From: Achromobacter sp. B7
Lineage (GTDB): Bacteria; Pseudomonadota; Gammaproteobacteria; Burkholderiales; Burkholderiaceae_B
Assembly (NCBI RefSeq): GCF_003600685.1
Contig: NZ_CP032084.1
Location: forward strand, 4,526,001-4,590,000
Direction: 5' to 3'
DNA: 64,000 nucleotides
Shown here: positions 34,639 to 58,874 of the stretch, piece by piece
Position numbering within the stretch: the first letter of the stretch is position 1
Layout: each line of letters begins with the position of its first letter
Translations under genes and position numbers: made by a program
Notes under the pieces: model-generated
Databases searched by the model: none
The model's input: only the letters and a program-made list of their open reading frames with translations
What the model was told of the DNA's origin: nothing

Positions 34639-37121
34639 AACAACAAGCCATCGTGACGCTGCCGGCGTATGAGCCGCCGGTCAGCACGTACGTTCCCTAC
34701 TCGCACCACGTCACGCCCACCATCATCGCGACCCGCGACTGGGAGTACCTCTCGGTCTGGCGCATCGACGGGCGCACCTTTCAAGGCTACAGCGATGAGG
34801 AGCACTACCGCTGGGTCGAGGAGCTCAACAACGTGTTCCGGGGGTTCCCAACGGGATTCGGGATCTGGTCGCACCTTGTCCGTCGCAGGGTCTTCGAGTA
34901 TCCCGAAAGCGACTATCCGGACCAGTTCTCCCGCGCTCACGATGCCGCGTATCGCAAGGTCTTCGCCGGTAAGCCGCCGATGATCAATGAGATGTACTTG
35001 ACGGTACTGACACGGGTGCAGATCGATCCCGCCTTGCGCTTGCTGTCTAACTTTGAAAAGCGAACGGCGCGCTCGGCGCTTGCGTGGCAGAACCAGGCGA
35101 TCGAACAGCTCGATGACGTCAACCGCAAACTTCGCGGATCGCTCAAGCTCTATTCACCGGAGCTGCTAACCATTGTCGAGCGGGAGTCTCCGCACGACAT
35201 GAACGACGAGGAGTCTCCGCACGACATGAGCGGCGAGGAGCCTCCGCGCCGGAAATCGCGGTTCTCGGAACCGGCCGAATTCCTTGGCTTTCTGCTCAAC
35301 GGCAAGATGCAGCCGGTGCCGCTGGTGAACGCGCGCCTGTACAACTATCTGCCCACCAGTCGTCAGTTCTTCTCCACGCACGGCGAACTCGCCGAGATGC
35401 GGGGGCCTGACTGGACACGCCGCTACGTGATGCTGGAACTTCGGGAGTACTCCAACAACACCAAAGCCGGCCACCTGAACTGCTTGCTCAACCAGCCGCA
35501 CGAGTTTGTGCTGTCGCAGTCCTTTGGCGCGATGTCAAAGCCCGATGGGCTGAAGGCGCTGTCACGCCAAATCAAGTGGCTGGAAGACTCTGGCGACTAC
35601 TCCGCGTCCCAGATCGAAGATCTGAAGAAGGCCCGCGACGAACTGGCCGCAGGTCGCTTCGTCATGGGTGACCACCACGCCACTATCCAGGTGTTCGGCG
35701 ATGACAGCGAGGGGGCCCTTCGGGCGGCCGCGAGTATCAGCGGCGCGCTGGCTGACGAAGAAATCATCGGTCGTCTGTGTGATCGCTCATCCTTGGCCGC
35801 GTGGGCCGCCCAGTTCCCGGGCAACTGGAAATGGCGCCCTCGCCCGGCGCCGATCACCTCGCTGAATTTCCTGAGCTTCTCCTCGATGCACAACTACCTC
35901 TTCGGAAAGCCGGCAAGCAATCCGTGGGGGCCGGCGGTCACGATGCTCAAGACGACGGGCGGCACGCCTTACTACTTGAACTTTCACGCCTCGCTTCAGG
36001 ACGTTGACGAAACCGGCAAGCGCCGCCTCGGGAACACGTCCATCATCGGCCAGTCCGGCGCCGGCAAGACGGTCCTCTTGGGTCATCTCATCACCCAGGC
36101 ACGCAAGTTCGACTACACGGGCATCGTGTTCGACAAGGATCGCGGCATGCAGGTGACCGTCATGGCGATGGGCGGCAAGTATTTCCCGCTGCGCCTGGGC
36201 GTGAAAACCGGCTGGAACTACCTGCAACTGCCTGACACCGCTTCAAACGTCGCGTTCATGGCCAGCATGACGAAGCTGTTGGGGGCAAACGGGGACGAGG
36301 AGGCCAGTCCCTCCGAGCAGAAGCAAATCGCCATGGCCGTCAACCAGCTTGTGAAGCACATCGACCTGGAGGATCGATGCCTGTCCAACCTGGTTAATTT
36401 TCTCCCCGCCGCGCCTGCACCTGACGGTCAGCTGAGCCTGAAAGAGCGCCTCAAACGCTGGTGCGCGGGCGGCGAGTATGGCTGGTTGTTCGACAACCCC
36501 AAAGACGAACTTGACCTGGCGGCTAACAACCTCTTTGGCTTTGACTTGACGGAGTTCCTCGAGCAAGGCCCCGTCCGTGACGCAGCAATAACGTACCTGC
36601 TTTACCGAACGGACCAGATGATGGACGGGCGGCGAATCGCCCTTTTCTTTGACGAAGTTCAGCACCCTCTGAAAGTGCCCTACTTCCAGGCGTCGATGCA
36701 GGATGCCAGCCGCACGGTTCGTAAGAAAAACGGCGTCCTGGTCTTCGCGACGCAGGAGCCCGCCGCGATCCTGGAGAACCCAGTAGGTCGCTCGCTGATT
36801 CAGCAGTCCGCGACCGCCATGTTTCTCGAGAATCCCAAGGCCACTGCCGAGGACTACGTTGACGGATTCAAGCTGTCTCCCGCTGTCTTCAAGATGGTCA
36901 AGGATCTGCCGCCGTTCAGCCGCCAGTTCGTCGTCAAACAAAACGAGTCTGCCGTCACGGCCGAACTGGACCTCGCCTCATGTCCCGAGGCGCTGCTGGT
37001 GTTCTCCGGATCCGAAGACCTGGCCGAAATCGCCGAAGCGGCAGTTGCCAAGCATGGTGACGACCCCGCGCTCTGGCTGCCCCACTACCTCAAGCTCGCC
37101 CAAGAGGCGACAAGGAGATGA
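34635..37121 (+). CDS. virB4: VirB4-type T4SS ATPase (828 aa)
   Basis: Large hexameric ATPase that energises pilus assembly and transfer. CagE/TrbE-like N-terminal half, then Walker A GQSGAGKT (residues 472-479) and Walker B-like RIALFFDEVQ. Start at 34635 overlaps the virB3 stop. An in-frame 27-bp duplication with a degenerate third unit (residues about 184-205, ESPHDM repeats) inserts an acidic loop. Full length. Confidence 0.94.
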   Translation: MKQQAIVTLPAYEPPVSTYVPYSHHVTPTIIATRDWEYLSVWRIDGRTFQGYSDEEHYRWVEELNNVFRGFPTGFGIWSHLVRRRVFEYPESDYPDQFSRAHDAAYRKVFAGKPPMINEMYLTVLTRVQIDPALRLLSNFEKRTARSALAWQNQAIEQLDDVNRKLRGSLKLYSPELLTIVERESPHDMNDEESPHDMSGEEPPRRKSRFSEPAEFLGFLLNGKMQPVPLVNARLYNYLPTSRQFFSTHGELAEMRGPDWTRRYVMLELREYSNNTKAGHLNCLLNQPHEFVLSQSFGAMSKPDGLKALSRQIKWLEDSGDYSASQIEDLKKARDELAAGRFVMGDHHATIQVFGDDSEGALRAAASISGALADEEIIGRLCDRSSLAAWAAQFPGNWKWRPRPAPITSLNFLSFSSMHNYLFGKPASNPWGPAVTMLKTTGGTPYYLNFHASLQDVDETGKRRLGNTSIIGQSGAGKTVLLGHLITQARKFDYTGIVFDKDRGMQVTVMAMGGKYFPLRLGVKTGWNYLQLPDTASNVAFMASMTKLLGANGDEEASPSEQKQIAMAVNQLVKHIDLEDRCLSNLVNFLPAAPAPDGQLSLKERLKRWCAGGEYGWLFDNPKDELDLAANNLFGFDLTEFLEQGPVRDAAITYLLYRTDQMMDGRRIALFFDEVQHPLKVPYFQASMQDASRTVRKKNGVLVFATQEPAAILENPVGRSLIQQSATAMFLENPKATAEDYVDGFKLSPAVFKMVKDLPPFSRQFVVKQNESAVTAELDLASCPEALLVFSGSEDLAEIAEAAVAKHGDDPALWLPHYLKLAQEATRR
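35184..35245 (+). repeat. In-frame 27-bp tandem duplication within virB4
   Basis: Two near-identical 27-base units (35184-35210 and 35211-35237; differences only in AACGAC versus AGCGGC) followed by a partial third GAGCCTCCGCG. They encode ESPHDMNDE, ESPHDMSGE and EPPRR. Confidence 0.9.
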
Positions 37122-37123
37122 TT

Positions 37124-37873
37124 ATGTTTGCATCGTTCAAGACCCGCTTCCTGTCCGTCCATGCCCAGCGCAAGCACGCAGCAGTGTTTGCCTGCGCGGT
37201 TGTGTTGGGTAACGCAGTGCTCCCAGTTCACGCAGCAGGTGTACCGACGGCGGACGCTATGGCGGCCGCACAACGGGCACTCCAACATGTGGAGACGCTG
37301 GCCAAGTACGCCGAGCAAATCGAAGTCCTCCGGGGCCAGCTCGAAAGCCAGAAGCGGCAGCTCGAAGCGCTCACAGGCACGCGAAATCTCGGCGATATCC
37401 TTAACAACCCGGCGATTCGCGATGCACTGCCGGCAGACGCACGGGATATTCTTCGTGCCTCCAATGGCGGGCTGGGCGGGATCTCGGACGCTGTGGAGCG
37501 CATTGAACGCGAGGAACGGTTGACGGGCAACTATGAACAGGACAAGAAGAACCTTGACGCCCGAGCCGAAAAACTCGCCGTTCGCAGCCAGGCGATGATG
37601 ACGCAGACGCAAAAAGCGATGACCGCCCGTGTCAAGCAGGTGGACCAGCTCCAGGCCAAGATCAATCAGGCCCAGGATCCAAAGGCCATCGCTGATCTGC
37701 AGGCCCGGCTGCTCGTCGAGCAGGCAAACATCCAGGCCGACCAAACCAGGGCGGACATGCTCACCCGCCAGATTGAGGCCGAGCAAGCCCTGATGGAGCA
37801 GCAAGCCGAAAAGCTGGCCGATAGCTCTTTCAGCCTTGGAGCAATCCGCGCGCCGCTTCCTGGAGCGAGATAA
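37124..37873 (+). CDS. virB5: VirB5-type minor pilin (249 aa)
   Basis: Periplasmic T4SS tip protein. Signal peptide (to about residue 37, LPVHA/AG), then a long helical bundle (QRALQHVETLAKYAEQIEVL ... QQAEKLADSSF) typical of VirB5/TrbJ. Start at 37124 rather than the ATG at 37118, because AAGGAG is too close to the first one. Its stop overlaps the virB6 start. Confidence 0.85.
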   Translation: MFASFKTRFLSVHAQRKHAAVFACAVVLGNAVLPVHAAGVPTADAMAAAQRALQHVETLAKYAEQIEVLRGQLESQKRQLEALTGTRNLGDILNNPAIRDALPADARDILRASNGGLGGISDAVERIEREERLTGNYEQDKKNLDARAEKLAVRSQAMMTQTQKAMTARVKQVDQLQAKINQAQDPKAIADLQARLLVEQANIQADQTRADMLTRQIEAEQALMEQQAEKLADSSFSLGAIRAPLPGAR

Positions 37874-44420: not shown

Positions 44421-45470
44421 ATGAGCGTCGAAGCATCCAAATGGGCCAGAATGGCCGACGTCCAGAAATCCTCATCCAAGCTCGTGTTGCTGAACCTGGC
44501 ACAGCTCGTTCGTTACGATGCCGACCACTGGACGGTTTTCGCATCGATCGACTACCTGGCCAAGGTCACGCATCTAAATCGCAAGACGGTCATCGAAGCC
44601 CTTGGCCGCCTTCGCGACTTGGGCGCGATCCAGGACACAGGGCGACGTGCAGGCGACAACCGTAGCAGCATAGTTTATCGCTTGTGCCCGAATGCGGTCC
44701 CTCTGATCGACCTTGCGGCTACCGGCGCCGTCGCTGGCGGCGAATCGCAGGCAGCGCAGCAAGACCTGGCGCTGCAGGACGGCTTTGAGGTTGACGATGG
44801 AAACGCGCCGCCGGCATCTCCGGCCGACGACCGCGAGACGAATGCCAACCCAAGCGGGCCGTCAGAGCGGGGTGGGGCCACAGTTGACGAGTCGCTGTCT
44901 CTTCCCAAGGGGGACGCACCTTCGCCGCACTGCGGCGGGACGGGCGGGAGTTTTTATTCAGTGTGCGAATCAACCGAAGCAACGGGGGCTGGCTTCGCAG
45001 CTGCATGCTTTCCCACTTCCCCTGCCGCAGGGCACAGGCCTGCCAGCAAGGCGCCCAGGGGAGCCAAGCGAAAGGGCCGAAAGCGCCCGCCCGAAGCGCG
45101 CGGTGCCGGCGCTGGCCCGACCAGACTTCCAGCGAGCTGGAGCCTGCCGGAACAGTGGCGAAGTTGGACGCAGGAGCAGCGGCCGCTTTGGACGCAGGAG
45201 AAGATCGACGCCATGGCCGCCACCTTCAGCGCCTACATGCGGTCCAGACCCGGAGAACTGGGCATGTCACCCGACTGGTTCGAGTCATGGCGGCTCTGGG
45301 TTTTCCGGGAACGCGACGCCGGAGAGACGGCGGGCATGGCCTGGCAGAACAGTTGGACCGGCATCGTGGCCACCGGCAAGAAGCTCGGCGTTGAGCAGGC
45401 TCCGAACGAGCCGCCGCCCCATTTCAAGGCGCGCGTATTCCTCGCCGCCGGACTCGTGCCGTCCCATTAA
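44421..45470 (+). CDS. Plasmid/phage-type replication protein, HTH + DnaT-like (349 aa)
   Basis: Residues about 15-95 form a winged helix-turn-helix of the phage replication O / RepA-type (SSKLVLLNLAQLVRYDADHW, VTHLNRKTVIEALGRLRDLG). A long low-complexity Pro/Gly/Ser linker follows (about 105-235). The C-terminal domain (about 240-340) has SPDWFESWRLWVFRERDAGE and AWQNSWTGI, a pattern like DnaT or helicase-loader domains. The gene-free DnaA-box-containing segment starts four bases after its stop. Replication initiation or helicase loading is inferred, not proven. Confidence 0.6.
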   Translation: MSVEASKWARMADVQKSSSKLVLLNLAQLVRYDADHWTVFASIDYLAKVTHLNRKTVIEALGRLRDLGAIQDTGRRAGDNRSSIVYRLCPNAVPLIDLAATGAVAGGESQAAQQDLALQDGFEVDDGNAPPASPADDRETNANPSGPSERGGATVDESLSLPKGDAPSPHCGGTGGSFYSVCESTEATGAGFAAACFPTSPAAGHRPASKAPRGAKRKGRKRPPEARGAGAGPTRLPASWSLPEQWRSWTQEQRPLWTQEKIDAMAATFSAYMRSRPGELGMSPDWFESWRLWVFRERDAGETAGMAWQNSWTGIVATGKKLGVEQAPNEPPPHFKARVFLAAGLVPSH

Positions 45471-47128: not shown

Positions 47129-47557
47129 ATGCAACAGAATCACGCCCCGCCGGCGAATAGAGCCGAGATCGTTCAGCAGCTAAACAGGCTGGATGCCATC
47201 GACCAGCGCGCGCGGTTTCGCGCGCTCCTGCCGTTGATAGACCAGCTCGTTCGACGAGGGGTCACCCACGCCAAGATCGTTGAAACGCTGATCAACGCTG
47301 GCGTACCCGTGACCATCCTGTCGCTGCGGCAGGCCCTTTACCGATGGCGTAAGCGGACCGGGCCTGTGCCAATCGACGAGAACCGGGCTGACATCCGTTC
47401 AACGCCCGGCACTGCAGCAGATCTGCCCGCCGCAGCCCCCGTCACCAGTAGCTCGTCGACGAGCGGCATCCATAGCAAAGCCGACCTCGTTCGGCTTAGC
47501 CGAGCTTCAGATCCCATTGACCTCAATGAACTGGCCGAACTCGGCCGAAAAAAATAG
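47129..47557 (+). CDS. StbA-like HTH protein upstream of stbB (142 aa)
   Basis: Residues about 30-75 (LVRRGVTHAKIVETLINAG, then TILSLRQALYRWRKRTG) form a helix-turn-helix; the C-terminal half is a disordered linker with a short charged end. Position directly before an stbB-type ATPase matches stbA of IncW R388, which binds 11-bp-period repeats. The sequence itself gives only HTH-level support. Confidence 0.6.
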   Translation: MQQNHAPPANRAEIVQQLNRLDAIDQRARFRALLPLIDQLVRRGVTHAKIVETLINAGVPVTILSLRQALYRWRKRTGPVPIDENRADIRSTPGTAADLPAAAPVTSSSSTSGIHSKADLVRLSRASDPIDLNELAELGRKK

Positions 47558-47566
47558 GAACCCCGC

Positions 47567-48274
47567 ATGAAAATCGCAACCGTCAACTATTCCGGCTCCG
47601 TCGGCAAAACCGTCACGACCAGCCACCTTCTGGCGCCCCGCATTCCGGAAGCCGAAATTATCGCCGTTGAGTCGACCAACGAAAGCGCTGCCGATCTCGG
47701 TCTGGATGTCGAACAGATGCGTGGGGGACAGTTCGGCCGCCTTTTTCGCAAGCTGCTCATGGCGGAAGCTGCAATCGTCGACGTCGGTGCCTCCAACATC
47801 GAGGACTTCCTGGCCGAGCTGGTGAAGTACGACCAGGCGCATCTCGAGATCGATTACTACGTGCTGCCCGTGGTCACTTCCGGTAAAGCGCAGCGGGAAA
47901 CGATCAAAACGATCCAGGTTCTCGCGCAGATGGGTGTGCCGCCAGACCGCGTACGCGTGCTCTTCAATCGCGTCGATTCCGACGTGCGTGAGGAGTTCGC
48001 CGCCATCTTCGGATACGCCGTGCAGTCCGGCGATTTTCGCGCCAATCCTGAAGCAGCGATCTTTGAGAACGAGGTGTTCGATCTGCTGGCCAACAAGCGC
48101 ACAACGATCAAAGAGATCCTCGCCGACCCGCGCGACTACCGCCAGGAGCTGCGCCAAGCTGATCGTGACGACGTGAAGCTCGTCAGCCATCTCAGCGACA
48201 TGCACGCCCTACAGTCCCTGGCGCGTCCTGTTGACCGGCAGTTGGACAAGGCATTCGACGCCCTCTTCATGTAG
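47567..48274 (+). CDS. stbB: StbB-like ParA-superfamily ATPase (235 aa)
   Basis: P-loop protein of the StbB/ParA type. The N-terminus MKIATVNYSGSVGKTVTTSHL is a deviant Walker A, followed by IIAVESTNESAADLG and AAIVDVGASNIEDFL. In R388 StbB links plasmid stability and conjugation. 9 bases after the StbA-like gene and 8 before the next. Confidence 0.82.
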   Translation: MKIATVNYSGSVGKTVTTSHLLAPRIPEAEIIAVESTNESAADLGLDVEQMRGGQFGRLFRKLLMAEAAIVDVGASNIEDFLAELVKYDQAHLEIDYYVLPVVTSGKAQRETIKTIQVLAQMGVPPDRVRVLFNRVDSDVREEFAAIFGYAVQSGDFRANPEAAIFENEVFDLLANKRTTIKEILADPRDYRQELRQADRDDVKLVSHLSDMHALQSLARPVDRQLDKAFDALFM

Positions 48275-48282
48275 GAGGCACA

Positions 48283-48690
48283 GTGACCGCAATACCGTCC
48301 GGAAGCCCGGCCACCTCCTCTGCTATCCCCCGCAGCAGGATGGAGCTTTTATACCGCGACATGCTGCAGGAAAGCGCGCAGCTCGTCGTTCTGATCGAGC
48401 AGCTGACCGTCCGGCAACAAGAAATCGCGGCAACGATGCAGGCGGTTCCGACCATGGTGCGTCAAGCTGGCCTGGAGGCGGCGGCCAATGCGGGCAGTCA
48501 AGCCGCCCGCTCGCTTCTTGAGGCCAGCCGCACCCTGGCCAAGTCGACCTCAGACGCCCGCGTTGCGACTCGCGTTGCCACCCGAGCGTTGCCGGCGGCC
48601 GCGTGGCGAGCTGGCGTGCTGTGCGGGGTCTGCGCGCTCATCGGCAGCGGGATCGGCGGCGCGTTGGTGGCCCTCGCTCTTCGCCAGTAG
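48283..48690 (+). CDS. StbC-like protein with C-terminal membrane anchor (135 aa)
   Basis: Helical protein (about 20-100, Gln/Ala-rich coiled-coil) ending in a transmembrane helix WRAGVLCGVCALIGSGIGGALVALAL. The GTG start is supported by a strong AGGAGG. Position after stbB matches stbC; sequence-level identity cannot be shown by eye. Confidence 0.65.
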   Translation: MTAIPSGSPATSSAIPRSRMELLYRDMLQESAQLVVLIEQLTVRQQEIAATMQAVPTMVRQAGLEAAANAGSQAARSLLEASRTLAKSTSDARVATRVATRALPAAAWRAGVLCGVCALIGSGIGGALVALALRQ

Positions 48691-48753
48691 CCCTCGCAGG
48701 CCCAATCTCCAAGGCGCCCCGGGGCGCCTTAATCATCTTCCAAAAGGACATTC

Positions 48754-50382
48754 ATGGCACCCGACATACGCCGGCGAATCATCAAATTCGTCCTCTTATT
48801 CCTGCCCCTTTCTGCGTGGCTTCTCACTGCCAAGATCATGTCAGGCATTCCGCTATCGCACGTTACCTGGCTAGTCCTGTCGCATTGGGTCATATCGACG
48901 CCGGACTACCCAGCTCTGATCGCGGCGCCGAGCATCGGCTTCGTTCTGGCCCTGGCAATCTCGCTCACGCTCAAAAAATACTCGACCAAAGAAGGCTTTG
49001 ACGGCGCGGGGTACAAGAAGCACATACGCGGCACCGAAGTAGTCCCGGTAAAAAAGCTCGCTCAACTGTGCACCGAAAAAGGGAAGGCACAGATCGACGT
49101 TGCAGGCATCCCAATGCCAACCGGTATCGAAAACTTGCACCTTCTTCTGAACGGTGCGACCGGCAGTGGTAAATCGGTCCTACTGCGTGCGCTAGCCTTC
49201 TCTGCACTGAAGCGCGGAAACCGGTGCGTCATCGTCGATCCAAACGGGGACCTTTACAGCAAATTCGGACGGGCCGAGGACGTCTTACTCAATCCATACG
49301 ACGCTCGTACGGAGGGCTGGTCCTTCTTCAACGAGATCCGCGCGGACTTTGACTGGAAGCGGCTTGCGCTCTCCATCGTACCCCTCGGGAAGGACGCTAA
49401 TGCAGAGGAATGGAACGAATATGGTCGCCTGCTTTTGCGCGAAACTGCGCGCAAGCTGCATTCGCTAGGAACGCCCTCTGTGGAAGAGTTGTTTCGCTGG
49501 TGCACCATAGCATCGGACAACGACCTCCGAACCTTCCTCTCCGGAACCCTTGCTGAATCGCTGTTTGCCGGATCCGCCGAGGCGAGCAAGGCGCTTACGA
49601 GCTCTCGATTCGTGTTGTCCAAGTACCTTGCCGAGCACGTAAGTGTGCCGCAAGGTAAGTTCAGCATCCGTGACTGGATGGACACTGGCACGGGCAGTCT
49701 GTTTATCACGTGGCGCGAAGACATGATGGAGGCCCTAAAACCGCTCGTGTCTGCGTGGGTGGACGTCTTCTTGTCGGCGGTGCTTTCTCTGCCCGAAGAT
49801 CTTCAAAGACGGTGGTGGACTTACCTGGATGAAATCCCGTCGTTGGAAAAGCTCGCCTCGATCCAAGACGGTTTGACCAAGGGCCGCAAGCAAGGACTGG
49901 GAGTGGTGGCCGGTCTGCAGGCGGTGTCCCAGCTTAGGGACATCTACGGTGCAGATAAAGCGCAGACCCTTCGCGCTAGTTTCCGCTCTCTCGTGGTGCT
50001 TGGTGGGTCGAAGACCGATCCAGAAACGGCCGAAGAGATGTCGAAGGCCCTGGGTGAGCACGAAGTGGCGCGGCCGGAGTATACCGACAGCCGTAATCCC
50101 GGCAGTTCGCGCAACACCAGCGAACGCATGGTTCGCTCTACCGAACGAGTGGTGACGCCTGCGCAAATCCAGTCGCTGCCCGATCTAACCGGCTGGGTTG
50201 CCTTCGCTGGTGATCGGCCGATTGCCAAGTTCGTTCTACAACCAATGACCTTCGCGGTACGAAATGCCCCGTTTGTAGAGGCGAAGCGCGCCGGAGCCCA
50301 CAGGATGGCAAAGTCGCCAGCTGACGACCCCCAATCATGGTCGCCGGTGGATCTGCCCGAAGATCCGACCATGGCCGCATAA
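48754..50382 (+). CDS. trwB: TrwB/TraD-type coupling protein (T4CP, 542 aa)
   Basis: Hexameric DNA pump that couples the relaxosome to the T4SS. Two N-terminal transmembrane helices (about 8-28 and 50-75), Walker A GATGSGKS (134-141), Walker B-like WTYLDEIPSLEKL, and LKPLVSAWVDVFLSAVLSLP before it. Shorter than F TraD but similar to TrwB (about 507 aa). It directly precedes the relaxase gene. Confidence 0.92.
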   Translation: MAPDIRRRIIKFVLLFLPLSAWLLTAKIMSGIPLSHVTWLVLSHWVISTPDYPALIAAPSIGFVLALAISLTLKKYSTKEGFDGAGYKKHIRGTEVVPVKKLAQLCTEKGKAQIDVAGIPMPTGIENLHLLLNGATGSGKSVLLRALAFSALKRGNRCVIVDPNGDLYSKFGRAEDVLLNPYDARTEGWSFFNEIRADFDWKRLALSIVPLGKDANAEEWNEYGRLLLRETARKLHSLGTPSVEELFRWCTIASDNDLRTFLSGTLAESLFAGSAEASKALTSSRFVLSKYLAEHVSVPQGKFSIRDWMDTGTGSLFITWREDMMEALKPLVSAWVDVFLSAVLSLPEDLQRRWWTYLDEIPSLEKLASIQDGLTKGRKQGLGVVAGLQAVSQLRDIYGADKAQTLRASFRSLVVLGGSKTDPETAEEMSKALGEHEVARPEYTDSRNPGSSRNTSERMVRSTERVVTPAQIQSLPDLTGWVAFAGDRPIAKFVLQPMTFAVRNAPFVEAKRAGAHRMAKSPADDPQSWSPVDLPEDPTMAA

Positions 50383-50437
50383 CCATTTCACGCCGGACCG
50401 TCACCGTTCAGGGCGGTCTGCGCGTCTTGGAAATCTA

Positions 50438-53311
50438 ATGATCTCTTTGAAATCAATCCATCGGAGCGCCGCCACAAAGGCGTCGCATTACTACGCAGAC
50501 CAGAAAGACGATTACTACAGTCGCGACGGTACGGCCGCGCAATGGCAAGGCAAGGCGGCCGACGCACTAGGGCTTACCGGCGCGGTTCAACAGGAGGAAT
50601 TTCTGCGTGCGCTGCGCGGTGACTTTGGTCCAGACGTCAAACTATCGCGCTCTATCAGGTTGGATGCTGAGGCACGCGCGGCACTGGATATGACATTCTC
50701 TCCGCCTAAGAGCGTCAGCATCCAGGCGCTGGCCGGCAAGGATCCGTCAGTCATCGAGGCACACGACTGCGCGGTGAGCAAGGCGCTGGAATTTCTGGAA
50801 CATGAGCTACTGCGCGCGCGCCAGACGGAGCAGGGAATAACCACTACGGAGCGGACGGGCAACGCGGCTATCGCGAAGTTTCGACACGAGACGGCCAGGC
50901 CCACCGACGGTGCTTATTCGGATCCCCAGCTGCATACCCACGCACTGTTGATGAACCTTACCCAACGCGCCGATGGGCGCTGGGTCGCCATATCGAACGA
51001 TGAAATTTATCGATTGAAGTCCATGGTGGAATCGGTGTATCACGCCGAGCTGGCCAGCGGCCTGGAGAAGTCCGGCCATCAGATCCGCTACGAGGGCAAG
51101 AGCTTCGAACTCGCGCATATCTCTCGGGACCACATCGAAGGGTTCTCCAAGCGTTCGCAGGACATCAATGCTGAACTGGCGGCATTGGGTGAAACCCGCG
51201 AATCTGCGAGCAGAGCACTCAAGCAAACTATCGCCCTCAAAACTCGCCTGGACAAGGCCCCCGAAATTTCTCGCGAAGAACTTCAGCGTGACTGGGAACG
51301 ACAGGCGACTGAACTCGGCATTGATTTCAATGGAGCAAAGCAACCACTGGAAAAGGAAGCCGGATTGGAAAGCGGCAAGCCACCCCGGCAGGAATTGACG
51401 CCGGAGGCGGCTGCTCTGATTGCGGACGAATGCCTCCGGTGGGCGATCAAGCACCACACCGAACGCGAATCAGTGATGGACGGAAAGGAGATGCTGAAGA
51501 CCGCGCTGCGCCGTTCGCACGGCATGGGCATAAAGCTGGGCGACCTCAAATCGGCCGTCAAGCGCTCACTTGATAAAGGCCATCTGATCCTTGGGACGAT
51601 TCAGTACCGGCACGCGAAGGATAAAGACGGCGCCGGCGAATCGCGGTCGGACTTGGTCGCCGCCCTCGTTGTCGGTGGCATGAGCAAGAAACATGCGGAA
51701 GAAAGAATCCGCATTTCCATTGCTCGAGGCGAGCTTGTTCCGACCGGCGCAAGGTACACCACACAGGTGGCTCGGGAGCGCGAAAAGCGAATCCTTCAGA
51801 TCGAGCGCGAGGGGCGTGACCAGGTCGCGCCAATCTTGGATATTCAAGCAGCCCAAAGCGCTATGGCTGGCCGCTCGCTCAAGCCTGGCCAGCTGGCGGC
51901 CGCCAATCTGATCCTCAGCACGCCACACCGGTTCATCGGCGTCCAAGGCCTGGCGGGAACCGGAAAGTCGCACATGCTGGCTCAGGTCAAGGAGGCCGCT
52001 GAAGCTGCGGGCTTCAAGGTCCAGGCCGTGGCGTCCTACGGCAAGCAGATCGAGGCCCTGCGGGAACTCGGAATGGAATCCAGGACCGTAGCATCCGTTC
52101 TGGAGGCACGTCAGAAGGAGCGCTTCAAACTCGACCCGAAAACCGTCCTTGTCATCGATGAGGCGGGCGTGGTCCCTGCCCGCCTCATGGAACGCCTGAT
52201 GAAAATGGCCGAGGCCGACGACGCACGCATCGTCATGCTGGGCGACACGGGCCAAACCAAGGCCATCGAGGCTGGCCGCCCGTTTCACCAGTTGCAGGTA
52301 GCTGGCATGGCTACGGCCCTAATGGGCGACATCATTCGCCAGAAAACCCCCGAATTGAAGGCTGCGGTGGAACTAGCGGCAAAGGGTCAGGCGTCGGCCT
52401 CCCTTGGCGTGTTAGATCAGAAGCTGAAAGCGGTGCACACCATCAAGGACGACGGCGAACGATATGACGCCATAGCGACGCGATACGCAACGCTGAACGA
52501 CGATGAGCGGCGGGAGACCCTTATCGTGACCGGGACGAACGATTCGCGAAATGCCTTAAACGAGGCCACCCATCAAGCACTTGGCCTCGGCGGCCGCGGC
52601 TTTGAATTCAAGATGCTTACCCGACGTGACACTACGCAGGCAGAACGGCGAGTGGCCAAGTACTTCATCGCTGGGGATATTGTGCAGCCGGAGCGGGACT
52701 ACAAAGCTGGGAATTTGCGGCAGGGCGAGATGTACCGCGTCATTGGCGCGCTTGCCGGAAAGCCCAATGACCTAGTCGTTGAGCATATGGAAAAGAAGGT
52801 CCGGACCACCTTCAATCCTGCGCGTGCCGCCAAGTTGTCAGTCTACGAACCAGTCAAAGCAGAGTTATCCGCCGGCGATTGGGTTCGGGTGACGAGGCAC
52901 AACGCGGCTCTTGATTTGGCCAACGGTGATCGGTTTGAAGTGCTCGCGGTCACGCCCACAACGGTCACCATCGGCGGCAACGGCCGACGAATCACGATGA
53001 ACGCGGCAACAGCACCGCTGCATCTTGACCGCGCCTACGCGTCCACAAGCCACAGCGCGCAGGGACTGACATGCGATCGCGCGCTGATCAACTCTGAGAG
53101 TTTTAGCCGCACCACGCAGCGCGACGTCTACTACGTGGCGATTTCCCGAGCACGCTTTCACACGGAAATCTATACCGAGAATGCCGCAAAGCTGTCCGGC
53201 GCCGTGAACCGGCTCGAGGAGAAGACGGCGGCGTTGGACATAGGCTTGGAATCTACCCGTCCATGGCGACCACACAAAGCGCCCGTAGCGATGGAACTCC
53301 ACACTAAATAG
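50438..53311 (+). CDS. trwC: MOBF relaxase-helicase TrwC/TraI type (957 aa)
   Basis: Nicks oriT, covalently pilots the T-strand and unwinds it. The relaxase domain (1-300) has tandem tyrosines Tyr18/Tyr19 and Tyr26/Tyr27, as in R388 TrwC (Y18, Y26). Metal histidines are His150 (FRHE), His166 and His168 (LHTH). The SF1 helicase (about 480-940) has Walker A GLAGTGKS at 504-511, Walker B VLVIDEAG and the late motif AYASTSHSAQGLTCD. Size matches TrwC (966 aa). Confidence 0.95.
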   Translation: MISLKSIHRSAATKASHYYADQKDDYYSRDGTAAQWQGKAADALGLTGAVQQEEFLRALRGDFGPDVKLSRSIRLDAEARAALDMTFSPPKSVSIQALAGKDPSVIEAHDCAVSKALEFLEHELLRARQTEQGITTTERTGNAAIAKFRHETARPTDGAYSDPQLHTHALLMNLTQRADGRWVAISNDEIYRLKSMVESVYHAELASGLEKSGHQIRYEGKSFELAHISRDHIEGFSKRSQDINAELAALGETRESASRALKQTIALKTRLDKAPEISREELQRDWERQATELGIDFNGAKQPLEKEAGLESGKPPRQELTPEAAALIADECLRWAIKHHTERESVMDGKEMLKTALRRSHGMGIKLGDLKSAVKRSLDKGHLILGTIQYRHAKDKDGAGESRSDLVAALVVGGMSKKHAEERIRISIARGELVPTGARYTTQVAREREKRILQIEREGRDQVAPILDIQAAQSAMAGRSLKPGQLAAANLILSTPHRFIGVQGLAGTGKSHMLAQVKEAAEAAGFKVQAVASYGKQIEALRELGMESRTVASVLEARQKERFKLDPKTVLVIDEAGVVPARLMERLMKMAEADDARIVMLGDTGQTKAIEAGRPFHQLQVAGMATALMGDIIRQKTPELKAAVELAAKGQASASLGVLDQKLKAVHTIKDDGERYDAIATRYATLNDDERRETLIVTGTNDSRNALNEATHQALGLGGRGFEFKMLTRRDTTQAERRVAKYFIAGDIVQPERDYKAGNLRQGEMYRVIGALAGKPNDLVVEHMEKKVRTTFNPARAAKLSVYEPVKAELSAGDWVRVTRHNAALDLANGDRFEVLAVTPTTVTIGGNGRRITMNAATAPLHLDRAYASTSHSAQGLTCDRALINSESFSRTTQRDVYYVAISRARFHTEIYTENAAKLSGAVNRLEEKTAALDIGLESTRPWRPHKAPVAMELHTK

Positions 53312-53580
53312 GATGAAAAATGCAATGAATTCAAACGCCGTGCTTCACCTAATTAGCATGGTCAGCTTTGTACACGTTGGAGGTACCAACAGGGAGCGGG
53401 CCACTGGCGAAAACCAAGCTCGTGCAGACGCATGCAGCCTGGATGTTTAATGAGAGCTTGAAATAGGCGAATTTGGGCGAAAAATGACTCCATCGAGCGT
53501 GCCAGATGGGGTCGAAAGTCACACCATGCCTAGTGTTGGGTAATGCTCGCGGTGCGTTGCATGCAGCACCGAGAAAGAGA

Positions 53581-54261
53581 TTATGCCGGCGCGGGCCCGG
53601 CATCTTTCGGGCCTTCTTCGCCGAGCAACACATGCATCGTCTGAACCAGCCGTTTCTCCACGGCGGCGCCCTTATTCTCCGCCTCATCTCTCAAGGGAAA
53701 GCCGTTCTGCCGCCAGATTTCCAGCATGATATCGACGACATCCTTGTCGTCGTGCTTGACCCTGTCCTGTCGGGCGACGTTGGTATCAATCAGGCAATAC
53801 CACCAGTCGTTATTGAATGCACCGATCGCATCCTCCAGATCAGGAAAGTAGAACTTGGTGAGCATGATGAGGTGCTGGCCAGAATCCGTTGGATGCGCGG
53901 CCGGATTTCCTGTAATGAGCGTTTCGAATGAATGCCGGTAAACATCCTGCGTCTTCAGAAACGATTCCATCAGCTCTTCCAACTTCTTGATCCGCAGGGT
54001 GTGCAATTCCCCCCGCTTGCCGATCTGGCTCTTGATCGTCTCCGTGGTGTTCGTCGTCGTGGTGAGCTGGCCCTTGATCTTCTCTAGGTCGGCGCTGATC
54101 GCAGCGTTCGTGGCGCGCGTCTTGAGGTAGGCCCCAAAGAACGATCCACCGGCGGCCACCACCAGCAGGATCGCCATCGACACTAACTGCTGCTGCCAGC
54201 TACCCAGTCCGGCCAGCGCATTCGCCAGCTCGTGTATGGCGGTTACAACCTTCTCGTCCAT
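53581..54261 (-). CDS. Hypothetical membrane protein with coiled-coil (226 aa)
   Basis: Unrecognised. One N-terminal transmembrane helix (about 25-47, QQLVSMAILLVVAAGGSFFGAYL), a Thr/Lys-rich coiled-coil (55-95), then a soluble helical domain. GGGAGGA precedes the ATG. Transcribed toward the relaxase gene. The 269 bases between it and trwC hold no credible gene. The repeat array at 54442 lies 180 bases upstream of its start. Confidence 0.72.
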   Translation of the reverse strand: MDEKVVTAIHELANALAGLGSWQQQLVSMAILLVVAAGGSFFGAYLKTRATNAAISADLEKIKGQLTTTTNTTETIKSQIGKRGELHTLRIKKLEELMESFLKTQDVYRHSFETLITGNPAAHPTDSGQHLIMLTKFYFPDLEDAIGAFNNDWWYCLIDTNVARQDRVKHDDKDVVDIMLEIWRQNGFPLRDEAENKGAAVEKRLVQTMHVLLGEEGPKDAGPAPA

Positions 54262-54441
54262 GCAGACGTCCTCCCGATTTCGGCAGCCGAAAGTCTACTT
54301 GAACAACGACGTTTCGATCCTGTCAGGACGACCGAGTCCGTGAGGATCGGCCGCGCTGAGGCGGTGATGAAAGACCGTCAGGCTCAAGAAACGGGGCGGT
54401 GCGGGTCAGTGTCACGCTGAGTTCTTTACCAACGGTGGGTT

Positions 54442-54547
54442 TGTCTCACCGTTGTCTCAATGCTGTCTCACATCTGTCTTATGTGTGTCTCATGTATGTC
54501 TAATTTATGTCTCACACATGTCTCATATGTGTCTCACACATGTCTCA
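54442..54547. repeat. Ten 11-bp-period iterons, consensus TGTCTCA
   Basis: TGTCT occurs at 54442, 54453, 54464, 54475, 54486, 54497, 54508, 54519, 54530 and 54541: exactly every 11 bases, ten times. Eight copies read TGTCTCA; copies 4 and 6 read TGTCTTA and TGTCTAA. The 4-base spacers vary. A dyad AACGGTG / CACCGTT (54431-54437 / 54447-54453) brackets the first copy. The fixed helical phase marks a multi-site protein-binding array: a partition centromere, StbA-type operator or replication iterons. Confidence 0.93.
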
Positions 54548-54886
54548 AGGCGGGGGGCCGGACGCCGAAAATGCCGAAAAACGAACAGATGTATACGGCG
54601 GAAACTCGCGCAGAGCAGCGGCCCTGGTGGCCTGCGGCATTTGTGGACCGTTCGTTGTCAGACAAAAGAAAACAACCTGCCGCAAGGAAAATCCAAAAAA
54701 AACAAAGAGATGAACCCACCCGGAGGGTGCGTCCTGTGTGGTGGCTTTAAGGGACCCGCCGCCGCCCTGGCGGCGGGGGCCTTAAGGACACCTGTGAGCG
54801 TCCGGGGGACGCTCACGAAGTCGGAAGGACGGCCCCGCCGGCGCAGCCGGTGGGACTGGGCGCTCCGATCCAAAACGCCGTACATC

Positions 54887-54925
54887 CAAAGCAAAGGGCC
54901 GCCCATAGGGCGGCCCTTTGCTTTG
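54887..54925. terminator. Strong bidirectional hairpin upstream of the aminoglycoside kinase
   Basis: 18-bp perfect stem CAAAGCAAAGGGCCGCCC / GGGCGGCCCTTTGCTTTG with a 3-base loop ATA. It insulates the aph gene from leftward and rightward read-through. Confidence 0.75.
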
Positions 54926-55084
54926 CCGGAGTTGCGACCATCGAACGTCAGCGAATGGGGCCATTTTGATACACTCGCCGGCCGACGCCGCCTGTCCGGG
55001 GTCGATCGGTCATCAGTCCGGGGATTCGTATAACAAACGTTCGTGCCACTGGACACAAATCAAAATCTTGTAGACAAGGGCAGC

Positions 55085-55861
55085 ATGGACAAGGATATCC
55101 CGACCAAATGGCGAGAGAAATTAGCCGGAGCAGTCTTCGAGCGGCAAGTGATCGGCGAGTCGGCGGCAGAAGTGTTTCGCGTTCGTTGCAAGACCGGAAA
55201 CCAGCTATTTCTAAAGTCCGAGTCCGCTGTCTTGCAAAGCGAGCTTGCGGGCGAAGCTGAGCGCCTTAGATGGATGACACGGCTAGGTCTACCCGGACCT
55301 TCAGTTCTCGATGAAGCGACCGAATATGATCGCCACTGGCTACTCATGACGGCTGTCCCGGGTCTCGATTTGGCCAGCGCAAACCACCTAGAGCCGCACC
55401 AGATCATAAAAATGTTGGCCGCAGCGCTACATTGCCTCCACAGTGTGCCAAGTGAGACCTGCCCCTTCGGAATCAGTCTCGACGAGCGCATCGCGGCCGC
55501 CGAAAATCGCGTCAGAAAAGGACTCGTTGACGAATCCGATTTCGACAGGGCATTTCAAGGACGAACCGCTAGGGAACTGCTCGCTGAGTTGTGGTCAACG
55601 CGCCCAGACGCTTATGAGCGAGTAGTGGTTCACGGGGATGCCTGCTTACCGAACTTCATCGTTGATGGACACACCTTTGCGGGATTCATTGACTGTGGTG
55701 GCCTAGGCGTTAGCGACCGTTATCAAGACCTCTCCTTGACCGCAAGGAGCATTGCCCGTAATTTGGGGCAGGAGTGGGTTGATCCATTCTTTCGCGAATA
55801 TGGCGTGGAACCCGACGCGCAGCGTATAGCGTTCTTCTGCGCACTCGACGAGTTATTCTGA
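55085..55861 (+). CDS. APH(3')-type aminoglycoside phosphotransferase (258 aa)
   Basis: Cytoplasmic kinase that phosphorylates the 3'-OH of kanamycin/neomycin-type aminoglycosides by family. The phosphotransferase loop HGDACLPN (catalytic Asp), FAGFIDCG (metal-binding Asp) and LGVSDRYQDLSL are nearly as in APH(3')-II, and the protein ends in the typical LDE + aromatic residue. ATP-lobe Lys in LFLKSESA. AAGGG precedes the ATG. Lower GC than its neighbours suggests separate acquisition; no transposon or integron is visible around it. The variant is not identifiable by eye. Confidence 0.88.
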   Translation: MDKDIPTKWREKLAGAVFERQVIGESAAEVFRVRCKTGNQLFLKSESAVLQSELAGEAERLRWMTRLGLPGPSVLDEATEYDRHWLLMTAVPGLDLASANHLEPHQIIKMLAAALHCLHSVPSETCPFGISLDERIAAAENRVRKGLVDESDFDRAFQGRTARELLAELWSTRPDAYERVVVHGDACLPNFIVDGHTFAGFIDCGGLGVSDRYQDLSLTARSIARNLGQEWVDPFFREYGVEPDAQRIAFFCALDELF

Positions 55862-55942
55862 CCAAGGTGGTGTCGCGAACGCCGAAGCCTCTCAAGCAGC
55901 GGCCGCCCGAGGGCGCCCTTTTGCATTGGCTGATGGGTTACA

Positions 55943-56338
55943 TCACCAGATGGTCTGAACGTGGGGATAGTCCCGAATCTTCGAGTCAGCAGTGACCAAG
56001 GGTGCAGACAAATGCCGCGCCGTAGCCACTATGAGCCGGTCGGCCGGGTCTTTATGAAACTCCCCAGGAAGCTCAACCGACTGGACGGAAATCCGCACAT
56101 CCACCGGCACGAAGCGCACGGCCGGAACCTGGACAACGGTATCAAGCCAATCCGCCGCGTCCATCGTCAACGCAAGGCGTCCAGCTTTGACCAGCATTGC
56201 AACCTCCCACGCTGTGATAGCCGAGATCAAGATCTCCCCGTCCTGGCCCTCTGCGTCGATTGCCTCCCGTGCCGCGCGACTGAGCTGGGAATCACCCGAA
56301 ACCCACCAAAGCAGAGCATGGGTGTCCAACACAATCAT
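55943..56338 (-). CDS. vapC: VapC-type PIN-domain ribonuclease toxin (131 aa)
   Basis: PIN-domain nuclease: first acidic residue in IVLDTHALLWWVSGD (Asp5), Glu in ISAITAWEVAML, then DPADRLIVATA and LVTADSKI complete the acidic site. Start at 56338 overlaps the antitoxin stop by 4 bases (ATGA). Likely inhibits translation by RNA cleavage unless bound by its partner; stabilises the element by addiction. Confidence 0.9.
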   Translation of the reverse strand: MIVLDTHALLWWVSGDSQLSRAAREAIDAEGQDGEILISAITAWEVAMLVKAGRLALTMDAADWLDTVVQVPAVRFVPVDVRISVQSVELPGEFHKDPADRLIVATARHLSAPLVTADSKIRDYPHVQTIW

Positions 56339-56574
56339 TGAGCAGCCTCCCAAAAATCTTCGCCAATCGGCGACAGCGGATCATCGAACCGCACGACCGA
56401 CCCCCGCAGCACGGCCAGCGGATCCCGATCAATCGCCCGGTAGGGGCGGATTTCCAACGCGGGCTTGCCGTGATCCGTGACAACGATGGGTTCCCCCGTT
56501 GCCTCCACTTGCCGAAAAAACTCTAACGCCTTCGCCTTGAATTCGGTTTTCGATACCTGTTGATGACTATGCAC
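56335..56574 (-). CDS. Phd/YefM-type antitoxin (79 aa)
   Basis: DNA-binding antitoxin: the N-terminal Phd fold has VSKTEFKAKALEFFRQVEAT and PIVVTDHGKPALEIRPY; the C-terminal half wraps the toxin. GTG start supported by GGAGGG at a good distance. Paired with vapC by a 4-base overlap. A dyad upstream is the probable operator. Confidence 0.9.
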   Translation of the reverse strand: MHSHQQVSKTEFKAKALEFFRQVEATGEPIVVTDHGKPALEIRPYRAIDRDPLAVLRGSVVRFDDPLSPIGEDFWEAAQ

Positions 56575-56601
56575 GATGCGCCCTCCAAGCGGTCATTTCA
56601 T

Positions 56602-56627
56602 ATAGTCATTTTAGCATAAAAGACTAT
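56602..56627. promoter_or_regulatory. Candidate Phd operator
   Basis: ATAGTC...GACTAT inverted repeat with 14-base spacing in an AT-rich patch about 30 bases upstream of the antitoxin start; further TAGCAT half-elements occur around it. Confidence 0.5.
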
Positions 56628-56712
56628 TTAGCATGGTCATTTTTTGCGTGCCCGAATGGCCAGCAATGCCCCCTATGCGGCCCGCCGGACGTCCGCCCGG
56701 CGGGCACGGCCA

Positions 56713-58698
56713 CTACGTTTTGGCCAGATCGTTCTTCACGTCCAACACCACATTCACCGGCACGGGCTGTCTGCGCATCAACTCGGGAACCCACCGCGTC
56801 TCTGCCAGCAGTTCCTCGGCTGCCGCCGCCGCTGGTCCCTTCTTCATCGCCAGCAGAGGTTTGGCTTGGTCGGCACCGGCTGCGTCGGCAACAACAGCCG
56901 CGATTCGGTCCTTCGACACGTGCGCGAGGTAGGACTGCGCCGTCGGCTTCCACCATTTGCTCATGTCCAACTCGACCAGTTCGCCCAAGCGGTCAAGGTG
57001 CTGGGGTTCTTCACCGTAGGAATTGCTTTTGCGGCGGTAGATCGAAGCTCCCGCCAGCACAGCCAGCAGCTCGATCAGGTCCGCGTGCGGCTGCTCCAGC
57101 AACCAGGGCAGCACCGCCACGCCGTCATCGGGAGTCTGCTTCGTGACGGCTTCAATGTGCGCGTGCACCGCTGCCCAGGCCGGGCTCTCCTTGATGCCAG
57201 CGTCCGTGTTCGCCAACTCGTGGTGCGCAGTTCGCAACGAAAAATCGAACGTGTCTCCGGCGCTGCTGCGGCGGCTTCTGTCGAAATCCCCCAGCATTTG
57301 TTCGATAAGCAGGCAGAGGGCGAGCGTCGGGCGCATCATGATTTCGGCTTGGAGCGCAATGACGCGCTGTGCCTGGAGCCGGTTGGTCAGCGCCTCTGAA
57401 TGCACGGGCCGCGTCATAATGGGGGGCAAGTCTACGCCCGCCGTTTTCTGGCCATCTGCGTCGTTGCTTCGCTTGGCTTGTGCCACGGCGTCGCGCTCGT
57501 CCTGACGGATCAGGCCCCGAGTGACGGTCAAGTCGCCTTGATAGTCCAGGTGCACAATCGCGCCGCACAGGGCTTTCAGGTCGGCCGGGTAGTCGTAAAG
57601 CTCGGCCTGGATTTCACGAATCTGCCCTTCACAGCCGCGAATCACGCCGCGAACTTTGTCCAGGTCGGCCGCGCCGAGGCCTTCGGACTCTTGCAATTCA
57701 GCAAGCTTTGTCCGCGCCGCTTCGATCTTCTTTTGCAGTCCGTCGATCTGCTTGGCCTGGGCCTTGGTCGGCTCCTGGTTGACGCGCTGAATCTCGCCAA
57801 AGGGCTTTTTGTCGGCGTACTCGAAAGAAACACGGCATTCCACCCACAACCAGCCCTCTGCCTGCACCGCCTTGAACAGCTTGGACCGCTGCATCTTGGC
57901 AGCGCCCATGCTGCGCACCTTCTCCGGGTCGGCCAGATAGGCGTCGTTCTCGAATAGGTCGCGGCGAACTTCCCCGCCCGCCTTCTCATACGCGGCGACG
58001 GTCACGTACCGCGCCACGGGCGAGTCGCCGCGCATTTCAGTTTCGGCCAGCAACTGGCGGATGTGGTCATCGCGGTTCCAGTATTGGCCCGCCGACGCCT
58101 TCCATGCCGCCTCCTGGCGGGTGTGGTCGGACACGGAAGCCAGCGCCTGCATTTCGTCCATCTTGATTTTGCCGTCGCGGAACAACTGCATGAGCGTGGG
58201 CGAAACGCCGCCCAGCGCCAGCAGCTTCTTGACGGCCGATTCTGAAGCGCCATGCGCGGCGGCGATGGCCGCAACCGTCCAGTTTTCGGCGCGCAGACGC
58301 GCATAGCCTGCATACACGTCTGCCGGGTGCATCGCCTTGCGCCCGAAGTTTTCGACTAGGCTGGCGTGGTAGGCGTACTCGCTCGGAATGACGAGGCAAG
58401 GGACCGGGTAGTCGGTTGGGAAAACGCCGCCTTCGATCAGCAGGCCAAGGGCTGTCCACCGCCGTCCGCCCGCGCACACCTCATAGGAGCCGTCCGGCGC
58501 TGCGACCACAACGAGGTTTTGCAGGAGTCCGCCCATCGCCTGGATGGTGGCTTTCAGCTCCAGAATCTCGGTGTCCTGTTTGCGGTCCTGCGCACTTCGT
58601 GCTTGGTACGCTTCGCTGAGGCGCAGTTGCGAATGCGGGATATCCATGCGCGTGGCGGCGGCGTGGATGGCGGCGAGTTCGTTGGAATCGAGTTTCAT
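56713..58698 (-). CDS. parB: Large ParB/RepB/Spo0J-family protein (661 aa)
   Basis: Partition-type DNA-binding protein. The ParB nuclease-like N-terminal domain (about 30-130) has YEVCAGGRRWTALGLL and ASLVENFGRKAMHPADVYAG. The HTH region (about 130-200) has WTVAAIAAAHGASESAVKKL. The C-terminal 400 residues form a long extension with coiled-coil (about 300-360) seen in ICE/plasmid homologues. Start at 58698 with GGAG at good spacing. No ParA gene lies next to it. Confidence 0.88.
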   Translation of the reverse strand: MKLDSNELAAIHAAATRMDIPHSQLRLSEAYQARSAQDRKQDTEILELKATIQAMGGLLQNLVVVAAPDGSYEVCAGGRRWTALGLLIEGGVFPTDYPVPCLVIPSEYAYHASLVENFGRKAMHPADVYAGYARLRAENWTVAAIAAAHGASESAVKKLLALGGVSPTLMQLFRDGKIKMDEMQALASVSDHTRQEAAWKASAGQYWNRDDHIRQLLAETEMRGDSPVARYVTVAAYEKAGGEVRRDLFENDAYLADPEKVRSMGAAKMQRSKLFKAVQAEGWLWVECRVSFEYADKKPFGEIQRVNQEPTKAQAKQIDGLQKKIEAARTKLAELQESEGLGAADLDKVRGVIRGCEGQIREIQAELYDYPADLKALCGAIVHLDYQGDLTVTRGLIRQDERDAVAQAKRSNDADGQKTAGVDLPPIMTRPVHSEALTNRLQAQRVIALQAEIMMRPTLALCLLIEQMLGDFDRSRRSSAGDTFDFSLRTAHHELANTDAGIKESPAWAAVHAHIEAVTKQTPDDGVAVLPWLLEQPHADLIELLAVLAGASIYRRKSNSYGEEPQHLDRLGELVELDMSKWWKPTAQSYLAHVSKDRIAAVVADAAGADQAKPLLAMKKGPAAAAAEELLAETRWVPELMRRQPVPVNVVLDVKNDLAKT

Positions 58699-58724
58699 CA
58701 AAATGCTCCGGGTCGATATCGAGA

Positions 58725-58874
58725 TCAATGCAGTTGCGCGGGGATTTCGGGCGCGTCAATCGCCGCGATGAGGGCAGCAAGCTGGCGCATGGTCATCGCG
58801 GGAATGCGAAAGCCCAGGCCCAGCAAGTGAGCGCGGCGCATGTCGTTCGCCAATCTGATAAAGTCGTGGTTCAT
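58725..58874 (-). CDS. Small protein directly upstream of parB (49 aa)
   Basis: A 49-codon frame (MNHDFIRLANDMRRAHLLGL...) starts at 58874 behind AGGAG and ends 26 bases before parB. It is helical and amphipathic. Its length, ribosome site and position in the leftward operon argue that it is real; function unknown. Confidence 0.55.
   Translation of the reverse strand: MNHDFIRLANDMRRAHLLGLGFRIPAMTMRQLAALIAAIDAPEIPAQLH

What the first reader, a model, noticed from the sequence alone, without database searches (positions are those of the whole stretch)
54442..54547. Ten helically phased 11-bp repeats (TGTCTCA) of unknown ligand
Ten TGTCT(C/T/A)A heptamers occur at exactly 11-base intervals, bracketed at one end by a dyad. 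R388 StbA is known to bind 9-bp repeats spaced by 2 bp (11-bp period) near stb, and the element here carries a StbA/B/C-like set at 47.1-48.7 kb, yet the array lies 6 kb away, between a membrane-protein gene and an aminoglycoside kinase. The sequence differs from the R388 repeat. It may be a relocated centromere or stb site, replication iterons, or an operator controlling both flanking genes.
Basis: partly seen in the sequence, partly recalled or inferred. Interest (0 to 1): 0.75.

Follow-up and report, generated by a model that had tools for sequence, protein, structure and literature searches.

The report
StbA-type repeat array beside transfer origin
Ten evenly spaced DNA repeats in an Achromobacter mobile element are most likely docking sites for the element's own StbA stability protein; they sit beside the start point for DNA transfer, and in related elements the repeat sequence tends to change when the StbA protein changes.

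Summary
In detail: ten TGTCTNA heptamers at exact 11-bp steps, 54442-54547, the only such array in the 6.24-Mb genome. The window lies in an Achromobacter integrative conjugative element. All 11 elements whose StbB is at least 80% identical to the window's have a helically phased array there (edge 182-205 bp from nic), while stbA lies 7-36 kb away (10 elements). The repeat sequence differs between elements. Of 22 shared proteins, StbA identity best tracks array similarity (r=0.75; relaxase -0.14; oriT core 0.02). In one pair both stbA and array have changed although trwB-trwC between them is nearly identical. StbA matches R388 StbA's DNA-binding domain (7pc1) by sequence and predicted fold. 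Best explanation: an oriT-linked StbA-binding array working like R388 stbDRs, but with another sequence, on the other side of nic, detached from the stb operon. Binding is untested, and the covariation fails below about 60% StbA identity. Iterons, an operator for the flanking genes and ParB binding are disfavoured. New variant of a known kind.

The parts
54442..54547 (+). Array of ten TGTCTNA heptamers, 11-bp period; proposed StbA-binding sites
54591..54596 (.). GTATAC box, 136-138 bp before the GTGCG of the nic hairpin in 11 of 11 elements (GTGTAC in G017)
54655..54665 (.). Palindrome TTGTC-A-GACAA in the oriT block
54717..54739 (+). Predicted relaxase site: hairpin CACCC-GGA-GGGTG followed by CGTCCTGTGT; nic predicted between 54739 and 54740
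   Evidence: layout compared with R388 oriT
54740..54925 (+). Conserved leading-side block with strong hairpins (first arms 54740-54763 / 54769-54792; terminator-like 54887-54925)
47129..47557 (+). StbA-like DNA-binding protein, proposed ligand of the array
47567..48274 (+). StbB-family ATPase-like protein, with the SGxxGKT motif (SGSVGKT)
   Evidence: NCBIfam NF041292; 42% identity to R388 StbB; motif read
48283..48690 (+). StbC-position protein (no family hit)
   Evidence: position only
48754..50382 (+). TrwB/TraD-type coupling protein
   Evidence: Pfam PF10412; 57% identity to R388 TrwB
50438..53311 (+). TrwC/MobF relaxase
   Evidence: Pfam PF08751, NCBIfam NF041492; 48% identity to R388 TrwC

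Best explanation
The array is the DNA platform of the element's own StbA protein and a fixed part of its oriT region. SHOWN from sequence: phased repeats at a near-constant distance (182-205 bp) from a conserved TrwC-like nic site in 11 of 11 close relatives; repeat sequence that follows StbA better than it follows the relaxase, coupling protein, ParB-like protein or the oriT core; StbA carries the R388 StbA-type helix-turn-helix domain. INFERRED: one StbA DNA-binding domain sits on each 11-bp unit so that copies line up on one face of the DNA; this row of StbA beside nic acts on the excised circular element as in R388, where StbA acts through its repeats on both vegetative stability and conjugation, with StbB as partner. 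The conserved StbA C-terminus (73% mean pairwise identity; linker 20%) may touch a shared partner while the DNA-binding part and the array diversify together.
For: Arrays in 11 of 11 elements with StbB of at least 80% identity (10 scored: 0 of 500 shuffles each, and no other 180-bp window as high, though the margin is small for G094, G017 and G036b: 15, 18, 15 against maxima 14, 15, 14; the 11th, G024, 16 units). Edge 182-205 bp from nic in 11 of 11 while stbA-to-nic runs 7.0-36.3 kb in the 10 measurable. StbA identity against array similarity r=0.75, permutation p=0.0005, first of 22 proteins (next 0.49; StbB 0.44, TrwB 0.33, ParB-like 0.12, TrwC -0.14, oriT core DNA 0.02); still first of 10 proteins after adding G024 (0.61, 0.71, 0.77 for word lengths 4, 5, 6). 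Of 112 shared window ORFs 3 separate the two TGTCTCA relatives from other types, StbA by 12.2 points, the others by 1.6 and 1.5. Natural recombinants: window against G013b, bins 90-100% across 48.6-53.2 kb but stbA 56-73% and the array bin 57%; window against G027, stbA 93-96% and same array type but trwB 59-82%. G031 and G013a: identical StbA, same unit GTCCCGGT with different spacer letters. StbA matches 7pc1 by sequence and by predicted fold (top hit). R388 StbA binds its 11-bp-period repeats in vitro (PMC3098194, section 9).
Against: No binding data. The link is not predictive below about 60% StbA identity: G013b StbA is nearest to G036a (57%) and G024 to G094 (61%), yet those arrays differ; strict nearest neighbours agree in 4 of 11, and in 6 of 11 if the three TGTCTCA elements count as one. 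StbB and StbC also correlate weakly (0.44 each, p about 0.01). Three arrays run in the opposite orientation. Of three more distant elements, G199 shows phasing (1 of 500 shuffles) but G161 and G204 do not. Array position, orientation and sequence all differ from R388.
Confidence: 0.8

Rival explanations
1. Replication iterons: an element-encoded initiator, for example the HTH protein 44421-45470, binds the repeats to start replication of the excised circle.
For: Phased direct repeats are typical of iterons (recalled); the HTH protein has an HTH_36 domain and is shared.
Against: Its identity tracks the array poorly (r 0.35 and 0.34): G013b and G036b are closer to the window (82%, 83%) than G025 (71%) is, although G025 shares the TGTCTCA array. 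Array position follows oriT.
Confidence: 0.04
2. Operator for the two flanking genes (membrane-type protein and aminoglycoside kinase).
For: The array lies between their 5' ends.
Against: Neither gene was found in the 13 other fetched elements, whereas the array recurs beside oriT.
Confidence: 0.03
3. Sites for another transfer or maintenance protein (ParB-like 56713-58728, a TrwA-like accessory protein) or for a host protein.
For: oriT regions often hold accessory-protein sites (PMC4853378, passages); a TrwA-like domain occurs at 21529-22290.
Against: ParB-like protein r=0.12. The TrwA-like domain was found in only 2 of 14 fetched stretches at a convincing E-value (the stretches may not cover every element). 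A host protein would not explain element-specific units.
Confidence: 0.08
4. The match between StbA and array is descent only: both diverged together without contact.
For: Only 11 related elements; weak correlation also with StbB and StbC.
Against: trwB and trwC, between stbA and array, do not show it, nor does oriT DNA adjoining the array (0.02); in the window/G013b pair both ends differ with 90-100% identical trwB-trwC between them.
Confidence: 0.05

Closest known systems
stbDRs and StbA of plasmid R388 (IncW, MOBF; PMC3098194; NC_028464)
   Same: Direct repeats with 11-bp period close to a TrwC-type nic site; StbA with the same DNA-binding domain; StbB with the SGxxGK[T/S] motif; relaxase and coupling protein related to TrwC and TrwB.
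   Different: Unit TGTCTCA, not TTGCATCAT; array on the trailing side of nic, not between nic and stbA; no such repeats found elsewhere in the window, so none at stbA; stb genes on the trailing side; integrative element; no trwA between oriT and trwB.
Arrays upstream of stbA in other elements of the family with StbB about 61-66% identical to the window's
   Same: Helically phased repeats near a stbA relative in 13 of 15 loci examined.
   Different: R388-like place in front of stbA; ATCG-containing units.
TraK of RP4 (named a StbA homolog in PMC3098194)
   Same: DNA-binding protein acting between nic and its own gene, according to that paper (section 9).
   Different: MOBP plasmid; not compared by sequence here.
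Iterons and ParB centromere arrays (recalled)
   Same: Rows of regularly spaced binding sites.
   Different: Array does not follow the HTH or ParB-like protein of the element.

Membership tests
R388-type stbDRs | Direct repeats with 11-bp period | tested here: met
   R388 from PMC3098194 (9 bp spaced by 2)
R388-type stbDRs | Consensus TTGCATCAT | tested here: not met
   unit is TGTCTCA
R388-type stbDRs | Located around the stbABC promoter, between nic and stbA | tested here: not met
   array 7.3 kb from the stbA start; no phased pair of units elsewhere in the window
R388-type stbDRs | Near the oriT | tested here: met
   182-205 bp from predicted nic in 11 of 11 elements, on the opposite side from R388
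R388-type stbDRs | Bound by the cognate StbA | not testable with these tools
   covariation only
R388-type Stb system | StbA with the R388 StbA DNA-binding domain | tested here: met
   7pc1 E 1.7e-7; top fold hit E 4.2e-3
R388-type Stb system | StbB family with SGxxGK[T/S] | tested here: met
   NF041292 313 bits; SGSVGKT read
R388-type Stb system | stb genes in the leading region | tested here: not met
   stbABC lie 5' of the predicted nic with trwB-trwC; paper: leading in all plasmids surveyed
TrwC-type (MOBF) oriT | Inverted repeat followed by conserved single-strand segment before nic | tested here: met
   CACCC-GGA-GGGTG-CGTCCTGTGT against R388 GCACC-GAAA-GGTGC-GTATTGTCT
TrwC-type (MOBF) oriT | Nicking by the cognate relaxase | not testable with these tools
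   nic position predicted
Replication iterons | Cognate initiator whose sequence follows the repeats | tested here: not met
   only the HTH protein 44421-45470 was considered: r 0.35 and 0.34 against 0.75 and 0.71 for StbA

The most novel reading that the evidence does not exclude
stbA and the oriT-side array form a two-locus specificity cassette that is exchanged and diversified between otherwise similar elements, so that co-resident elements are told apart when they are positioned or processed for transfer (a compatibility tag). In both genomes here that hold two such elements (G013, G036) the two carry different StbA and array types (2 of 2).
Probability: 0.3. Interest if true: 0.75.

Novelty: new variant of a known kind. 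Interest (0 to 1): 0.58.

Why it matters
It ties the StbA array to the transfer origin rather than to the stb promoter: in R388 these are neighbours and position cannot tell them apart, while here 7-36 kb separate stbA from an array that stays with oriT. It also gives a natural series of StbA proteins with matching arrays, from which the rules of StbA-DNA recognition could be worked out, and makes the link between DNA maintenance and conjugation testable in integrative elements.

Tried and rejected
Plasmid searches with the array region and with StbA by tblastn found no match; with the oriT block, only short low-score matches in 64 records, 51 of them Rhizobium. The oriT pattern over a sample of 399 genomes of the order matched only the window's own genome and G025; it was strict, and missed G024, whose oriT differs slightly and was found later. 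The heptamer pattern matched 3 of 268 family genomes. Rfam found nothing in 53300-56800. G027 contig C10 holds a fragment of array plus oriT inside chromosomal-type genes, not another element as far as seen. From overall StbA identity I would have guessed a GTAGAC-type array for G024 (nearest G094); it is TGTCCCA, so that guess fails. Residue 64 of StbA (L in the TGTCTCA group, E in the two CGG-containing groups) looked like a specificity residue, but many columns separate the groups with so few elements, so I do not claim it. By the helical-lag score the known R388 repeats (26) are not the top of their plasmid: 5 of 1105 other windows score as high or higher, maximum 66.

Limits of the counts. 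The correlation scan used 22 proteins that I chose, each found in at least 7 of 10 elements; one search used 10 of them. The ORF scan kept 112 of 297 window ORFs of at least 80 aa (both TGTCTCA relatives and at least 3 other-type elements needed), many off-frame. Fetched stretches were 28-84 kb per element, so a gene not found may lie outside. Of 52 genomes with a StbB match I followed the 11 places of at least 80% identity and three of about 71%; 15 more loci were examined around stbA only.

Full report
1. Observation. In the 6.24-Mb genome no other place matches three phased units with up to two mismatches. The helical-lag 5-mer score of the array window is 85, against at most 13 in 500 dinucleotide shuffles and at most 19 in 2761 other windows. 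The dyad at one end exists but I do not see it at the two closest arrays (by eye).

2. Surroundings. The genome is one contig and the genus is Achromobacter: contigs of four genomes of the same genus carry that name. The element has a tyrosine integrase (19836-21464), type IV pilus-like genes, TrbM and a VirB4-like protein, VirB9-, VirB10- and VirB11-like proteins, and stbABC-trwB-trwC (47129-53311). The R388 oriT read from NC_028464 has the same layout, GCACC-GAAA-GGTGC then GTATTGTCT; the proximal hairpin arm and the segment before nic are the parts TrwC needs (PMC4176350, passages). Nic between 54739 and 54740 is a prediction.

3. Related elements. StbB of the window was searched in 268 genomes of the family; 52 match. 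The 11 places with at least 80% identity, in 9 genomes, were followed; in ten the oriT lies on the fetched stretch, in G024 on another contig. In 11 of 11 a phased array lies before the oriT. Ten were scored: each beats all 500 shuffles and every other window of its stretch (1337-2761 windows), narrowly in G094, G017 and G036b. G024 has 16 units of TGTCCCA/TGTCTCA. The array edge is 182-205 bp from nic (192, 192, 192 and 194 in the TGTCYCA group) and the GTATAC box (GTGTAC in G017) 136-138 bp from the GTGCG of the hairpin. In the ten measurable elements stbA-to-nic varies from 7.0 to 36.3 kb and trwC-to-oriT from 0.9 to 31.7 kb. So the array goes with oriT.

4. The unit changes between elements: TGTCTCA (window, G027, G025), TGTCCCA (G024), TGTCGCG (G036a), GTCCCGGT (G031, G013a), GTAGAC, which is GTCTAC on the other strand (G013b, G094, G017), and a weak GTCAC (G036b). 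An element-encoded ligand that differs between elements would explain this. Array similarity (strand-symmetric 5-mers) against identity of 22 shared proteins: StbA r=0.75 (permutation p 0.0005), next a VirB9-like protein 0.49, StbB 0.44, StbC 0.44, HTH protein 0.35, TrwB 0.33, ParB-like 0.12, TrwC -0.14; oriT core DNA 0.02. After adding G024, StbA stays first of 10 proteins for word lengths 4, 5 and 6 (0.61, 0.71, 0.77). Of 112 shared window ORFs, 3 are closer in both TGTCTCA relatives than in any other-type element: StbA by 12.2 points, an off-frame ORF inside stbB by 1.6 and 37118-37873 by 1.5. Two natural mosaics tell the same story (150-bp bins). Window and G013b are 90-100% identical across 48.6-53.2 kb, and 74-96% over stbB-stbC, yet stbA is 56-73% and the array bin 57%. 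Window and G027 share stbA (93-96%) and array type, yet trwB is 59-82%.

5. Results against. Below about 60% StbA identity the link is not predictive: G013b StbA is nearest to G036a (57%) and G024 to G094 (61%), but their arrays differ. Strict nearest neighbours agree for 4 of 11 elements, and for 6 of 11 if the three TGTCTCA elements count as one. StbB and StbC correlate weakly too. Of three distant elements (StbB about 71%), G199 shows phasing (1 of 500 shuffles) while G161 and G204 do not. Three arrays run in the opposite orientation.

6. StbA. The 142-aa product has no Pfam or NCBIfam match but matches PDB 7pc1, the R388 StbA DNA-binding domain, at E 1.7e-7; it aligns to R388 StbA at 49% over 49 residues, and its predicted model has 7pc1 as top hit (E 4.2e-3; mean pLDDT 63.5, about 80 over the domain). 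Across ten elements the linker is 20% identical on average and the C-terminal 30 residues 73%.

7. Mechanism. In R388, StbA binds stbDR DNA in vitro and acts in trans on the repeats for both stability and conjugation (PMC3098194; passages and sections 6 and 9 read). By analogy StbA here lines up on one face of the array beside nic and, with StbB, balances maintenance of the excised circle against transfer. Shown: anatomy, near-fixed distance to nic, covariation, StbA domain. Inferred: binding, stoichiometry, effect.

8. Same and different. It works like stbDRs, but three features of the R388 case are not met: sequence, position at the stb promoter, and leading-side location. That paper states that in all plasmids it surveyed the stb genes are leading (section 6); here stbABC and the array lie on the trailing side of the predicted nic. 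In five more distant genomes a stbA relative lies directly beside oriT: G161, G199, G204, G085 and G208. In 13 of 15 loci with StbB about 61-66% identical, a phased array lies upstream of stbA as in R388. The group studied here is the case in which stbA and array are far apart and the array stays with oriT.

9. Novelty. Paper searches listed nothing on StbA arrays in Achromobacter or on StbA-array covariation; only listings were seen for most papers and only open-licence papers are held, so this is not proof of absence. I call it a new variant of a known kind.

Noticed in passing
window 54740-54925: The block just 3' of the predicted nic, first to enter a recipient, is highly conserved and folds strongly as single-stranded DNA (54700-54800: z -4.66); the first stem starts exactly at the predicted 5' end of the transferred strand, and G027 lacks that stem. 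It could be a priming or strand-start signal.
   Followed up: partly
L055 14970-15110 (G027 contig C10): Five TGTCTCA-type units fused almost directly to a short oriT core, inside chromosomal-type genes, in a genome that also has a full element: a scar or an orphan oriT.
   Followed up: partly
window 53.3-54.4 kb and 55.0-56.7 kb: Variable DNA on both sides of array and oriT: trwC-to-oriT distance 0.9-31.7 kb in ten elements, a cargo hotspot beside the transfer origin.
   Followed up: partly
window 21529-22290: 253-aa protein beside the integrase gene whose C-terminal half resembles R388 TrwA (32% over 114 aa, E 1.3e-9), about 32 kb from oriT; no Pfam or NCBIfam hit.
   Followed up: no
window 55043-55861: Aminoglycoside 3'-phosphotransferase relative (NCBIfam APH_3p, 308 bits) in the variable DNA beside oriT; not found in the 13 other fetched elements.
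   Followed up: no
L021-L036, upstream of stbA: Phased ATCG-containing arrays, and in several loci a second short TTCTACC set, upstream of stbA in related elements of other genera (the second set by eye).
   Followed up: partly
window 55943-56574: Phd-family antitoxin gene beside a gene that looks like a PIN-type toxin (recalled; no NCBIfam hit), the latter shared with G025 and G094.
   Followed up: no
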